Positions 2,615 through 54,665 of a stretch of 64,000 bases of DNA are shown piece by piece. A program made the translations under genes and the position numbers. The DNA comes from Arcobacter sp. FWKO B (GTDB lineage Bacteria > Campylobacterota > Campylobacteria > Campylobacterales > Arcobacteraceae): the NCBI RefSeq assembly GCF_014844135.1, contig NZ_CP041403.1:1116001-1180000 (forward strand), read 5' to 3'. A model generated the notes under the pieces. It was not told where the DNA came from and did not search any database. It worked only from the letters and a program-made list of their open reading frames with translations. Each line of letters opens with the position of its first letter. Within the stretch, counting starts at the first letter, position 1.

Positions 2615-3886
2615 ATGGCTCAGTCTCTTCTTCAAAACAAAAATATCCTTATTGGAGTAACTGCAAGTATTGCAATATATAAAACTTGTGAACTCATAAG
2701 GCTTTTTGTAAAAGCAGGGGCAAATGTGCGAGTAGTTATAAGTGAAGATGCTAAGAAATTTATAGCACCACTTACATTTGAAGCTCTTACAAATCAAAAA
2801 GTACTTGATATTACAAGCGAAGATTGGAGTAGCGATTATAATCATATAGCAATAGGTAAATGGGCTGATTTATTTATTATTGCACCTGCAACTGCAAATA
2901 CTATAAATAAGCTAAGTAATGGCATAGCTGATAATTTGATTACACAAATAGCACTTGCTTATCCTAGAATAAAACTTATAGCTCCTAGTGCAAATACAAA
3001 TATGATTAACAATCCTATAACTCAAGCTAGTCTTAAAATGCTTAAACTTTGTAATTATGAAGTAATAAAAACTGAGATAAAAGAACTAGCATGTAAAGAT
3101 GTTGGTGATGGGGCAATGGCAGAGCCAAAGAATATATTTGATATAGCAGTATCCAAGATACTAGAAGATGAATATTGGAAAAATAGAAAAGTAGTAGTAA
3201 GCTGTGGAGGAACGATAGAAAAAATTGATGATATAAGGTATATATCAAATTTTTCTAGTGGCAAAATGGGCGTTGCCATAGCAACTTCTCTTTATTATAA
3301 AGGGGCAGATGTTTGCTTGATAAAAACATTGGGTGTAAATGAGATAATACCAAATGGGATACACACAATAACAGTACAAAGTACAAATGAAATGTATGAA
3401 TATATAAAAGAATCTATTAGCGTAGCAAAAAAGGGCGTTTTAACAAAAAGCACTATTATGGACAACTCAAAACAAGAACTTATCCAAAAAAAACCATATT
3501 TTTTTAGTGTGGCAGCTGTTAGTGATTTTGTTCCTTCTTATCCTCAACACGGTAAAATTAAAAAAGATGATATTGGTGAAAATTGGAATTTAAACTTAAG
3601 TAAAAACATAGATATTTTATCAAGTATTGATAAAGATGGCATTTATACTATCGGTTTCAAAGCAGAAATGGATATAACAAACGCTAAAAACAATGCTCAA
3701 AATATGCTAAAAAATAAAAATCTTGATGGAGTTTGTTTAAATATTCTACAAGGTACCAAAAGCTTTGGAACTAAATCAAATACTATAGAACTTATATTAA
3801 AAAATAGCGAATTTTTCTTCGATGGAGATAAACTTGATATATCATTTGAGATAATAGAGACTTTAGCAAAAGAATTCCATGACTAA
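2615..3886 (+). CDS. coaBC: CoaBC: phosphopantothenoylcysteine synthetase / decarboxylase
   Basis: This bifunctional coenzyme A enzyme joins 4'-phosphopantothenate to cysteine (CoaB, C-terminal) and decarboxylates the product to 4'-phosphopantetheine (CoaC, N-terminal, FMN-dependent). The N-terminal flavoprotein starts ILIGVTASIAIYKTCEL; the catalytic His is in YNHIAIG near residue 75, a PSANTNM segment occupies the PAMNxxM substrate loop position, and the active-site Cys is in LACKDVGDGAMAEP near residue 160. The CoaB half begins around residue 190 with SCGGTIEKIDDIRYISNFSSGKMG, which is typical of the family. The 423-residue length is normal. The gene abuts glmU and overlaps uppS by 8 bp, so translation is probably coupled. 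Confidence 0.94.
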   Translation: MAQSLLQNKNILIGVTASIAIYKTCELIRLFVKAGANVRVVISEDAKKFIAPLTFEALTNQKVLDITSEDWSSDYNHIAIGKWADLFIIAPATANTINKLSNGIADNLITQIALAYPRIKLIAPSANTNMINNPITQASLKMLKLCNYEVIKTEIKELACKDVGDGAMAEPKNIFDIAVSKILEDEYWKNRKVVVSCGGTIEKIDDIRYISNFSSGKMGVAIATSLYYKGADVCLIKTLGVNEIIPNGIHTITVQSTNEMYEYIKESISVAKKGVLTKSTIMDNSKQELIQKKPYFFSVAAVSDFVPSYPQHGKIKKDDIGENWNLNLSKNIDILSSIDKDGIYTIGFKAEMDITNAKNNAQNMLKNKNLDGVCLNILQGTKSFGTKSNTIELILKNSEFFFDGDKLDISFEIIETLAKEFHD

Positions 3887-51522: not shown

Positions 51523-52938
51523 CTACTTAGCTGAAAAAATCCCTTCTGCCCACTGAGTAATAGTCCCTCGCAAAACTTTTTTAAGTTTTATAGCAAAAAT
51601 ATTCACAAGTTCTTGTTTTTTCTTAGTTGATTTCAATAAAGTTGTTAATGCATTAGTGTATTTATTTACATACATATTATCTATTTGCATATTACTACCT
51701 AATACAACCACTTTACAACTATTATCAACACGAGATAGTACCATTTGCATAGTTTTATTTGACATATTTTGGGCTTCATCAACTATTATGAATGCATTAC
51801 TTAATGTTCTACCTCTCATCTCGCCAACCCACATAGTTTCAATACCATATGCTTTAATCATTAAATCAACCCTAGTTGTAATCTCACTCTCTTCAAGTTC
51901 CTCATAAAAAGGTTTTGCACTTTTTTTCTTTTTGTGTTCACTTCTTACTATATAATTTAGGCTATCCATTAAAGGATGATTATATATCCTAAATTTCTCT
52001 TCAAGTCCTGGCAAATAACCTACATCCTCTCCTTTATCAAGAGACTCTATAGAGTTTCTTATATAAATGATTTTTTGAAATTCTTTTTTCTTCACCATCT
52101 TTAATGCAGTACTAAGCGCAAGTAAAGTTTTACCACTACCTGCAAGTGCTTCAACTATCAAAACATTATAATAGTGACTCACTAGTGCTTGAGAAAAAAA
52201 CAACTGCTCTTTATTAAGTGGAACAATAACTTGATCTCTAAGTTCATCTTCATCTAATACTATGATCTTTTCATTTGAAATTGTTGCTAATACCATCTGA
52301 TCAGAATATTTGATTTTAAAACAATAGCAAAAATTATAAGGTTTGTATTCCTCATCAAAATCATAAATACTTGAATTGTTCAAAAACTCTAGTTTTTCAA
52401 AATCTATTTCAATATTTTTAATAAATTCAAGTTCAAATTCACTAGTATCATTCCCTAAAAGTGATATAGCCTCTATATCAAGTGAAATTGCTCTAATTCT
52501 TGCCATAACATCTAGACTTAAAAATACAACATCTTTTGGATAATATTGCTTTGAAAACTCACTAAGCTCTAGAATCTTTCTATCATTATAAATATTTGGG
52601 GCAACATTTTTTGCATCACAGCTATAATGCTCTTTTGAAATAATATCTATAATAGCTTCTTGAGAGATATCTTTAATATAGACCCTTACAATTTTTACTT
52701 CATTAATGATCTTAGTTGATAAAATATCACACCCTTCAAGTAATCTCGCAAATTCTCTTGCTTGAAAATTTATCTCTTCAAAGCCACTTTTTTTACTATC
52801 TATTTCATCAAGTACTGTTTCAGGGAGTATTATAAGATTAGATTTATTTTGGGAAATTTTTAATATATTTTTTGCATCACTTAGTATAATATTTGTATCT
52901 AATACAAAATATTTCTCAAATGTATCTATATTTTTCAA
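51523..52938 (-). CDS. phoH: PhoH-family protein with N-terminal PIN domain
   Basis: A 471-residue PIN-PhoH protein (also called PhoH2/YlaK type), a probable RNA helicase-ribonuclease. The PIN domain begins FVLDTNIILSDAKN with the first catalytic Asp, and VLDEIDSKK supplies further acidic residues. The ATPase has Walker [37 protein letters not shown] and Walker B AFIIVDEAQNMS. The start is TTG, overlapping the hemJ stop as TTGA. The architecture is common in Campylobacterota. Confidence 0.9.
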   Translation of the reverse strand: MKNIDTFEKYFVLDTNIILSDAKNILKISQNKSNLIILPETVLDEIDSKKSGFEEINFQAREFARLLEGCDILSTKIINEVKIVRVYIKDISQEAIIDIISKEHYSCDAKNVAPNIYNDRKILELSEFSKQYYPKDVVFLSLDVMARIRAISLDIEAISLLGNDTSEFELEFIKNIEIDFEKLEFLNNSSIYDFDEEYKPYNFCYCFKIKYSDQMVLATISNEKIIVLDEDELRDQVIVPLNKEQLFFSQALVSHYYNVLIVEALAGSGKTLLALSTALKMVKKKEFQKIIYIRNSIESLDKGEDVGYLPGLEEKFRIYNHPLMDSLNYIVRSEHKKKKSAKPFYEELEESEITTRVDLMIKAYGIETMWVGEMRGRTLSNAFIIVDEAQNMSNKTMQMVLSRVDNSCKVVVLGSNMQIDNMYVNKYTNALTTLLKSTKKKQELVNIFAIKLKKVLRGTITQWAEGIFSAK

Positions 52939-53369
52939 AATGGTTTCACCACAACAAATACTACAATTAGTATTGCTAATATTGTTGGAACTTCATTATA
53001 TGCTCTAAAAAACTTCCCACTTTTTTCGCAAATATCAAGTTCTAATTGCTTTCTAAAATAGTTCAGGCTATATGAATAGGCGATCAATAGTATAACCATT
53101 GTTATCTTGGCATGCATCCATCCTCCACTGCTAAGTATTGATGGGTTTAATAATAACATCCCTATACCACTTATTACCGTTGCCCACATAGCAGGTATAC
53201 CTATATATTTATAAAGTTTGTATTCTTGAATTTTCACAACCTCTACAAACTCTTTTTTTTCTTTATGCTCTGTATGATAAACAAAAAGCCTAGGTAGATA
53301 AAAAAGCATAGCCATCCATGATATAAATGATATAACATGAAATGCTAATATCCAAGTGTAATACTCCAT
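52935..53369 (-). CDS. hemJ: HemJ-type protoporphyrinogen IX oxidase
   Basis: HemJ converts protoporphyrinogen IX to protoporphyrin IX in bacteria lacking HemG/HemY. The 144-residue membrane protein has four hydrophobic helices and the family motifs ILAFHVISFISWMAMLFYLPRLFVYH, with the conserved His, and GGWMHAKITMVILLIAYSY. AAAAAGGGG precedes the ATG by 6 nt. The promoter would lie in the repeat-bearing gap 53370-53474. Supplies heme for the cbb3 oxidase whose assembly genes are at 41-44.6 kb. Confidence 0.92.
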   Translation of the reverse strand: MEYYTWILAFHVISFISWMAMLFYLPRLFVYHTEHKEKKEFVEVVKIQEYKLYKYIGIPAMWATVISGIGMLLLNPSILSSGGWMHAKITMVILLIAYSYSLNYFRKQLELDICEKSGKFFRAYNEVPTILAILIVVFVVVKPF

Positions 53370-53383
53370 AAAAATCCCCTTTT

Positions 53384-53418
53384 TAATTAATAGATAATAA
53401 CTAATATCTAATAACTAT
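53384..53418 (+). repeat. 7-bp repeat block, left half of a composite element
   Basis: Five heptamers in register: TAATTAA, TAGATAA, TAACTAA, TATCTAA, TAACTAT (consensus TAnCTAA). An inverted copy of the same unit follows at 53465-53492, with two short hairpins between them. It lies just upstream of hemJ. Confidence 0.65.
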
Positions 53419-53421
53419 TGA

Positions 53422-53458
53422 GTGACTTCGTCACATAAAATATATCGCTTTAGCGATA
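53422..53458 (+). repeat. Two adjacent hairpins between inverted heptamer blocks
   Basis: GTGAC-TTC-GTCAC (53422-53434) and TATCGCT-TT-AGCGATA (53443-53458) are perfect inverted repeats of 5 and 7 bp. Their GC content is higher than that of the flanking DNA. They separate the two heptamer blocks symmetrically; this arrangement resembles a REP-like or mobile palindromic element. Confidence 0.6.
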
Positions 53459-53464
53459 CCTAAA

Positions 53465-53492
53465 TTATTAATTATTAGTTATTAACTATTAG
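53465..53492 (+). repeat. 7-bp repeat block, right half of composite element (inverted)
   Basis: Four heptamers TTATTAA, TTATTAG, TTATTAA, CTATTAG are the reverse complement of the CTAATAA-type unit at 53384-53418. The block overlaps the 3' end of rarA and supplies its last codons and stop. Confidence 0.65.
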
Positions 53493-54665
53493 TTTTATTT
53501 TTTCGTTCCACTCTCTAAGTGTTTTTTCAAAACCTATATCTTTTGATTCGTATAATTTCAAATCTTTAGACAAGTACTTTTGATCCACCCATCCCCCAAA
53601 ATCATGAGGATAAAGATACCCTATATTGTCTTGCTTTATATGCAAAGGTATATCTTGGATTTGACCATTTTGTATTATATCAAGAGTTTGATTAATTGCT
53701 TTATATGAACTATTTGATTTTGGACAAGATGCAAGATAAACTACACATTGAGCTAATATAATCCTTGATTCAGGATAGCCTATCTCTTTGACTCCAAGAA
53801 GTGTACTAGTTGCTAGATTAAGAGCATTTGGATTTGCATTGCCAATATCTTCACTAGCAAATATTACAAGTCGTCTAGCTATAAATGACGCTTCTTCTCC
53901 TCCAGCTATTAAAAGTCCTAGATAATAAAGAGAAGCATCTATATCACTTCCACGCATTGATTTTATTAATGCACTAGTTATATCATAATGACTATCTTTT
54001 GAACTACTTCCAAATCCTTGTGGCACATTCCTTAGCTCTTTTAAATCTTCTAGTTTTATTTCACCTCTTGCACTAAAGGCAAAATCAATAAGATTTAAAA
54101 TTGTTCTTCCATCTCCATTTGCTATGCGTATAACAAACTCTTTAGATTCTTCATCTATCGTAGTGTTAAGAGCGTTGATCGCTCTTTGTAGCAAGGTGTT
54201 TGATTCTTCATAATTTAATTCTTTAAACTCAAATAAAAATGACCTAGATCTAAATGCATTTGTTAGTGTATAAAAAGGATTTTCTGTACTAGCCCCTATT
54301 AAAATAAAATCATAATTCTCCATAAAAGGAAGAAGGACTTCTTGTTGATTTTTACTAAGTCTATGTATCTCATCAATAAAAATTAAAGGCTTTTCAAAGC
54401 TATTTTTATACCTTTTTACTATATCTCTAAACTCATCAATTTTGATAGTAGTTGCATTTAGATAATAATAAGGCATTTGTGAGTTTTTAGCAATAATCTT
54501 TGCTAGTGTAGTTTTTCCACTTCCTGGCTTACCAAAAAAGATCAGGTGAGGAATCTCTTTTTTGGTAATTAGTTTATACAATACACTTGTTTTGTATAGT
54601 AGATGAGTTTGACCTATAAACTCATCTAGATTAGTTGGCTTCAGTAAGGTTGCTAGTCTTTGCAT
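53475..54665 (-). CDS. rarA: RarA/MgsA replication-associated AAA ATPase
   Basis: RarA acts at stalled replication forks and is related to the clamp loader. The 396-residue chain has FIGQTHLL near the N-terminus, Walker A FFGKPGSGKTTLAKIIA, Walker B LIFIDEIHRLSKNQQ, GASTENPFYTLTNAFRSR (sensor 1 and Arg finger) and the C-terminal ASLYYLGLLIAGGEEASFIARRLVIFASEDIGNANP signature. The final codons fall in a heptamer repeat, so the C-terminus (KLIVNN) may have been altered by it. The start overlaps the previous gene by 35 bp. Confidence 0.93.
   Translation of the reverse strand: MQRLATLLKPTNLDEFIGQTHLLYKTSVLYKLITKKEIPHLIFFGKPGSGKTTLAKIIAKNSQMPYYYLNATTIKIDEFRDIVKRYKNSFEKPLIFIDEIHRLSKNQQEVLLPFMENYDFILIGASTENPFYTLTNAFRSRSFLFEFKELNYEESNTLLQRAINALNTTIDEESKEFVIRIANGDGRTILNLIDFAFSARGEIKLEDLKELRNVPQGFGSSSKDSHYDITSALIKSMRGSDIDASLYYLGLLIAGGEEASFIARRLVIFASEDIGNANPNALNLATSTLLGVKEIGYPESRIILAQCVVYLASCPKSNSSYKAINQTLDIIQNGQIQDIPLHIKQDNIGYLYPHDFGGWVDQKYLSKDLKLYESKDIGFEKTLREWNEKIKLIVNN

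What the first reader, a model, noticed from the sequence alone, without database searches (positions are those of the whole stretch)
53384..53492. Composite palindromic element: heptamer block, two hairpins, inverted heptamer block
Five TAACTAA-type heptamers, then GTGAC-TTC-GTCAC, then TATCGCT-TT-AGCGATA, then four heptamers in inverted orientation. The whole ~109 bp sits between rarA and hemJ and supplies the rarA stop codon. This symmetric layout is unlike a simple terminator and could be a small non-autonomous mobile or structured RNA element.
Basis: seen in the sequence. Interest (0 to 1): 0.55.

Follow-up and report, generated by a model that had tools for sequence, protein, structure and literature searches.

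The report
Mobile element with stop-codon repeat arms
The symmetric 110-base patch between two genes is one of several copies of a small DNA element that has spread between genes in one bacterial genus; its ends are repeats that read as "stop" in every frame, which may let it land beside genes without harming them.

Summary
In detail: window 53385-53494 is (7-mer)n arm, hairpin GTGAC-TTC-GTCAC, hairpin TATCGC..GCGATA, inverted (7-mer)n arm. It is not unique. The same genome holds 8 full copies plus degraded ones, and 2 of 3 congeners carry the family. None of 56 other genomes in the family and order do. The spacer between rarA and hemJ is short and array-free in 26 of 28 relatives that keep this gene order, and other copies face empty sites in sister species, so this is an inserted element. 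Full copies have fixed ends (about four 7-mers plus a tag) and always one A-type and one B-type hairpin. The hairpins covary between copies, but the arms do not co-adapt. I read it as a MITE/REPIN-like non-autonomous mobile element; no transposase is tied to it and its movement was not seen. The arms stop all three frames for ribosomes entering from either side (41 of 42 ends) and 10 of 21 copies supply a neighbouring frame's stop codon. Unexpectedly, in G001 four of the six sites without the element hold a different inverted 7- or 8-mer array. The heptamer arms and this swapping are the unusual parts.

The parts
53385..53494 (-). whole element (A-first orientation reads on the - strand, the direction of rarA and hemJ)
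   Evidence: full-length match to model R1 built from 20 copies, 111 bits (this copy is one of the 20)
53459..53494 (-). arm next to hairpin A: about four 7-mers (AACTAA TAGTTAA TAACTAA TAATTAA) plus tag TAATTTAGG; carries the rarA stop codon
53475..53477 (-). stop codon of rarA, inside the arm; the last codons (LIVNN) are element sequence
   Evidence: relatives align only to about residue 391 of 396
53443..53458 (-). hairpin A, TATCGC-TAAA-GCGATA
53435..53442 (-). AT-rich spacer, variable in length between copies
53422..53434 (-). hairpin B, GTGAC-GAA-GTCAC; strongest covariation
53385..53421 (-). arm next to hairpin B: inverted 7-mers plus tag, abutting the hemJ Shine-Dalgarno side
53376..53379 (-). 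GGGG, likely hemJ ribosome-binding site, just outside the element
   Evidence: sequence
52935..53369 (-). hemJ, downstream gene
53475..54665 (-). rarA, upstream gene, ends in the element

Best explanation
The 109 bp is one full copy of a genus-restricted family of about 110-bp non-coding insertion elements that work like a MITE or REPIN. Shown: dispersed copies, empty sites in relatives, fixed inverted ends, a two-hairpin core whose stems covary, and arms that close all three reading frames from both sides. Inferred: the core hairpins are recognised as folded single strands by an enzyme acting in trans, which copies the element to a new site, often next to a T-run between a stop codon and the next ribosome-binding site. 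Also inferred: the 7-mer arms are kept because a unit length not divisible by three, with a stop in each unit, ends any frame that runs into the element, so a landing at a gene's 3' end costs only a few extra residues. The mobilising enzyme is unknown.
For: Copies: 8 full in the genome at 90 bits or more, also in G001 and G002, 0 in G003 and 56 further genomes (BLAST). Empty sites: 869499 empty in G001, G002 and G003; 879443 empty in G001; 1753242 empty in G002; rarA-hemJ spacer array-free in 26 of 28 relatives with that gene order. Shared old copies: 350739 and 741359 in G001. Fixed ends and one A plus one B hairpin in 21 parsed copies. Hairpin covariation 0.246 against 0.132 sd 0.019 in shuffles (0 of 500), slid controls at most 0.083. 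Inward stops in all three frames at 41 of 42 ends; 10 of 21 copies contain the stop of an entering frame of 80 codons or more.
Against: No target-site duplication could be read (congener flanks about 70-93% alike). No transposase is tied to the family: the only Y1 gene of the genome is flanked by another repeat, and G002 has the element but no Y1 hit (G002 is about 86% complete). No movement was observed within a species. At four of the six G001 sites lacking the element a different array sits there, so those sites are not simply empty. The arms-as-stops idea rests on position and sequence alone, and AT-rich arms would hold many stops anyway.
Confidence: 0.72

Rival explanations
1. It is a structured RNA element of the rarA-hemJ operon (attenuator, mRNA stabiliser or translation control of hemJ), selected in place.
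For: Strong fold; one terminator-like hit on the transcribed strand at hairpin A; 14 of 21 copies have a ribosome-binding-type start 7-20 nt beyond one end.
Against: Neighbour genes differ from copy to copy; orthologous spacers lack it; the core is inverted between G001 and G002 at one shared site; arms do not co-adapt; non-Watson-Crick cells fall both ways, so no strand preference; no Rfam family.
Confidence: 0.15
2. It is a REPIN moved by a RAYT (Y1 tyrosine transposase) of the same genome.
For: Two inverted small palindromes with compensatory changes, intergenic, as in REPINs (PMC3116915, passages); a Y1 gene exists in the genome and in G001.
Against: GTAG tag at 1 of 42 hairpin ends only (read by eye); the resident Y1 gene is flanked by a different GGAAC palindrome family; no Y1 hit in G002, which has the element.
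Confidence: 0.2
3. No mobility: the arrays grow in place by 7-nt slippage and are mirrored by hairpin-templated copying.
For: Period 7 dominates in these genomes with many unit sequences; different inverted arrays occupy the same site in sister species.
Against: The same two-hairpin core recurs at 8 places, which slippage cannot make; arm length is nearly fixed; arms within a copy are not more alike than arms of different copies, 0.684 against 0.724.
Confidence: 0.08

Closest known systems
REPINs / BIMEs (inverted REP doublets)
   Same: two small palindromes in inverted orientation with a spacer, compensatory changes, intergenic, multi-copy
   Different: no GTAG or CGTC tag, 7-mer arms outside the hairpins, low copy number, no linked RAYT
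Bacterial MITEs (for example BrickBuilt of Porphyromonas gingivalis, which contains a minisatellite, PMC4596501)
   Same: small, non-coding, intergenic, inverted ends, multi-copy, limited host range
   Different: here the inverted ends themselves are tandem 7-mers and the core is two covarying hairpins; no target duplication or parent transposase shown
Heptamer tandem arrays (TAACTGA arrays of Beggiatoaceae, PMC4679880; heptanucleotide repeats of Mrazek et al. 2007 as described there)
   Same: 7-nt unit of nearly the same sequence, between genes, often just before a start codon, stops in all three frames noted there too
   Different: there direct arrays almost without inversion (1 inverted case of 170 sets) and no hairpin core; here paired inverted arms with a core, in a different phylum

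Membership tests
MITE | terminal inverted repeats | tested here: met
   arms of 36-37 nt in inverted orientation in 21 copies, imperfect and low in complexity
MITE | dispersed multi-copy with occupied and empty sites | tested here: met
MITE | no coding capacity | tested here: met
   no ORF of 60 aa or more inside; stops in all frames
MITE | target-site duplication | tested here: inconclusive
   flanks too diverged between species
MITE | autonomous parent with the same ends | tested here: inconclusive
   only Y1_Tnp was searched; other transposase families not tested
REPIN / RAYT system | two inverted palindromes with spacer | tested here: met
REPIN / RAYT system | GTAG (or CGTC) tag next to the palindrome | tested here: not met
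   GTAG at 1 of 42 ends, read by eye; tags are mostly NTGG, TAGG, TATG, TTGA
REPIN / RAYT system | RAYT gene flanked by copies of the repeat | tested here: not met
   Y1 gene in L057 flanked by GGAAC palindromes, no element within 1.4 kb either side
TAACTGA / STRR-type heptamer arrays | tandem 7-mers between genes | tested here: met
TAACTGA / STRR-type heptamer arrays | array alone, direct orientation | tested here: not met
   paired inverted arms around a two-hairpin core
Known RNA families (Rfam 15) | match at the family threshold | tested here: not met
   only a sub-threshold mir-999 hit, outside the element

The most novel reading that the evidence does not exclude
Inverted 7- and 8-mer arrays are one class of element defined by layout rather than sequence: unit length not divisible by three, a stop codon in each unit facing inward, two inverted arms, and a preferred site between a stop codon and the next ribosome-binding site. 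Arrays with different units, with or without a hairpin core, replace one another at the same site in sister species, so a site is kept while its sequence is swapped.
Probability: 0.3. Interest if true: 0.8.

Novelty: new variant of a known kind. Interest (0 to 1): 0.5.

Why it matters
If the stop-armed reading holds, it offers a simple reason why heptamers are the commonest longer tandem unit in many bacterial genomes: seven is not a multiple of three, so a few units stop every frame, and an element so armed can land at a gene end almost free of cost. The site-by-site array replacement between sister species is not explained by plain transposition or plain slippage and gives a clean, countable system to find out which process makes these arrays.

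Tried and rejected
Rejected: the long arm-arm stem as the selected structure. Arms of one copy match each other no better than arms of different copies (0.684 own, 0.724 cross, 20 of 21 copies parsed), and pair covariation is below the shuffles (0.120 against 0.151). Rejected: known RNA family. Rejected as sole account: intrinsic terminator; only this copy was scanned, with one hit, and the other copies' spacers lack a clear T-run by eye. Looked for and not found: element arms bracketing a gene as an autonomous parent (the two half copies at 491945 and 496397 have the same orientation, so they do not bracket anything). The Y1 gene as partner: not supported.

Dropped rows: L078 (assembly gap in its arm) was left out of alignment A1, so A1 and model R1 hold 20 of 21 full copies; a92 failed string matching, so that arm test has 20 of 21. 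A-type hairpin counts use 16 of 21 copies; five copies have a variant A hairpin with a mismatched stem. Further full-looking copies seen in G002 after the set was closed (L297, L307) are not in the counts of 21. Array swapping: for G001 I compared all 8 own full copies (2 shared, 2 empty, 4 with another array); G002 and G003 could be compared at fewer sites. One further site without a full copy, 364030, also shows different arrays. The seven other-unit array pairs were picked by eye; the 116413 pair found later is not among them, and one of the seven (L333) fits poorly (its left arm stops one frame only). Inward stops 62, outward 18, shuffles 36.3 sd 3.9, but tandem repetition widens the true spread. 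A rough chance estimate that 4 of 6 sites would hold another array, from 14 arrays in 240 kb of G001 and my assumption of about one spacer per kb, is a few in ten thousand. Papers: no description of such a composite element appeared in the search listings; most subscription papers are not held, so absence from print is not shown.

Full report
What is there. Read on the minus strand, the direction of rarA and hemJ, it is: an arm of about four 7-mers, a tag, hairpin A (TATCGC-TAAA-GCGATA), an AT-rich spacer, hairpin B (GTGAC-GAA-GTCAC), a tag, and an inverted arm. The nearest named relatives are metagenome assemblies filed as Arcobacter, Epsilonproteobacteria UBA6211 and Aliarcobacter (L209-L211, 77-90% identical HemJ), so the host belongs in or near Arcobacteraceae; the genome itself is unnamed.

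It is a family. BLAST with this copy found further copies across the genome. A covariance model of 20 copies (alignment A1, model R1) found 8 full copies in the host, four weaker or partial places, and copies in congeners G001 and G002. It found none in congener G003 or in 56 more genomes of the family and order, that is 3 of 60 genomes in all (the tool warns that weak matches can be lost). Printed copies show the same plan each time: one A-type and one B-type hairpin, tags of the kind NTGG, TAGG or TTGA, and in most full copies four 7-mers per arm. Degraded copies have lost a hairpin or arm units (for example C1:1380031 against its G001 counterpart, and G002:C25 against G001:C113, by eye).

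It was inserted. Of 80 loci kept from 209 relatives of HemJ, 28 have rarA directly upstream. In 26 of these the spacer is 8-101 bp, counted from the end of the rarA alignment, and array-free. Two A-rich spacers score moderately for period 7, and the two loci with arrays are the congeners. The copy at 869499 is empty in all three congeners and 879443 is empty in G001; 1753242 is empty in G002. Copies at 350739 and 741359 are shared with G001 in the same orientation, so the family is older than the split. At one site shared by G001 and G002 (L114, L129) the core is inverted between the species.

What is selected. In alignment A1 the hairpin pairs covary (score 0.246, shuffles 0.132 sd 0.019, 0 of 500; slid controls at most 0.083). 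In hairpin B, pair 3 is T-A in 11 and G-C in 10 copies, and pair 4 is G-C in 13 and A-T in 8 (21 of 21). The shuffle control does not correct for kinship. Non-Watson-Crick cells are of both kinds (T.G and A.C), which gives no sign of one strand. The arms do not co-adapt, so the impressive fold of the whole strand (z -6.3) follows from both arms being made of one 7-mer, not from selected pairing.

Where it sits and what the arms do. In 14 of 21 copies a start codon with a G-rich ribosome-binding-type stretch lies 7-20 nt beyond one end, in 10 of these at 14-16 nt. In 10 of 21 copies an open frame of at least 80 codons coming from outside ends inside the element (one of these stops straddles the edge; frames other than rarA were not confirmed as genes). 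At 41 of 42 ends all three frames stop within 36 nt. The rarA C-terminus LIVNN is element sequence. At 869499 the stop and last codons differ from all three empty relatives (by eye). The six bases outside the ends are T-rich, 63 of 120 letters and 71 of 126 against 35% in the window.

The unexpected part. The host sample (window plus 400 kb) holds 9 strict period-7 arrays and none of period 5 or 8-11 (one of 6, five of 12); G001 and G002 samples agree apart from one 8-mer array and a few longer units. Units differ widely between arrays. Of the 8 full host copies, all were compared with G001: 2 shared, 2 empty, 4 occupied by an inverted array of another unit. These four are the window site (GGTAAAA and CTACNNA), 869066 (8-mers GTACTAAG, also in G002), 1753242 (GTGAGTA) and 116413 (GTAATTG and 8-mers). 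At the window site G002 keeps TAACTAA-type arms without the core, and shares with the host the unusual unit order TAATTAA-(T/C)AGATAA (by eye). If this copy predates their split, G001 has swapped its array. At 364030 host, G001 and G002 carry three different arrangements and the host has a GGAAC palindrome pair between its arms. In seven such pairs picked by eye, stops face inward 62 times and outward 18 times, against 36.3 sd 3.9 in shuffles, and 11 of 14 arms close all three frames inward.

How it most likely works. Shown: insertion history, fixed ends, covarying hairpins, frame-closing arms. Inferred: recognition of the hairpins by an enzyme in trans and copying to new spacers; arms kept because they stop entering ribosomes in any frame. 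The likely partner is unknown. The single Y1 gene of the host is flanked by another palindrome family, G001's Y1 gene begins quite differently (by eye), and G002 has none found.

Known things near it. REPINs share the inverted doublet with compensatory changes (PMC3116915, passages read), and TnpAREP substrates may be as small as 10 nt interrupted by 4 (PMC8266576, passages); the GTAG tag and linked gene are missing here. GTAG- and CGTC-tagged REPs are surveyed in PMC3733652 (abstract and outline). MITEs share ends, size and placement (PMC10969869, passages; BrickBuilt, PMC4596501, abstract and outline). TAACTGA arrays share the unit type, the place before start codons and the three-frame stops (PMC4679880, abstract, introduction and passages); there only one inverted case in 170 sets is tabulated. 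That paper also reports, citing Mrazek et al. 2007, that heptanucleotide repeats are the commonest class in most genomes. I file the element as MITE-like and REPIN-like in how it works, not as a proven member of either.

Noticed in passing
L057:1300-1420, 540-670, 2040-2130, 3100-3185 (G000:C1 near 1660700): The only Y1 transposase gene of the genome is flanked by another palindromic pair family, GGAACGCCAGTC..GACTGG .. CCCAGTC..GACTGGGGTTCC, which looks like its own REPIN set and recurs elsewhere in the genome.
   Followed up: partly
L174:19618-19666: A CTATCAA 7-mer array lies in frame inside what looks like aroE, read in the orientation without stops, so arrays can also arise in coding sequence.
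   Followed up: no
L173:3958-4066 (G000:C1:363958-364066): A GGAAC palindrome pair sits between two inverted TCTAAAA-type arms in the host; G002 has arms without it, G001 a TAACTAA half array, G003 nothing.
   Followed up: partly
L132:2380-2560 and L123:1900-2100: At one site host and G001 keep outer 7-mer arrays (GTAGATG type left, TTAGTTA type right) but have different hairpin cores inside.
   Followed up: partly
L196:12685-12732: An 8-mer array (CTCAGTCA)n in G001; 8 is the only unit length from 5 to 11 other than 7 and one 6-mer found at the strict threshold.
   Followed up: no
L173:18385-18425 and L333, L336, L339, L345: A 7-mer array within a likely nucleotide-sugar gene; the same place varies widely, with arrays or palindromes, among paralogues in G001.
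   Followed up: no
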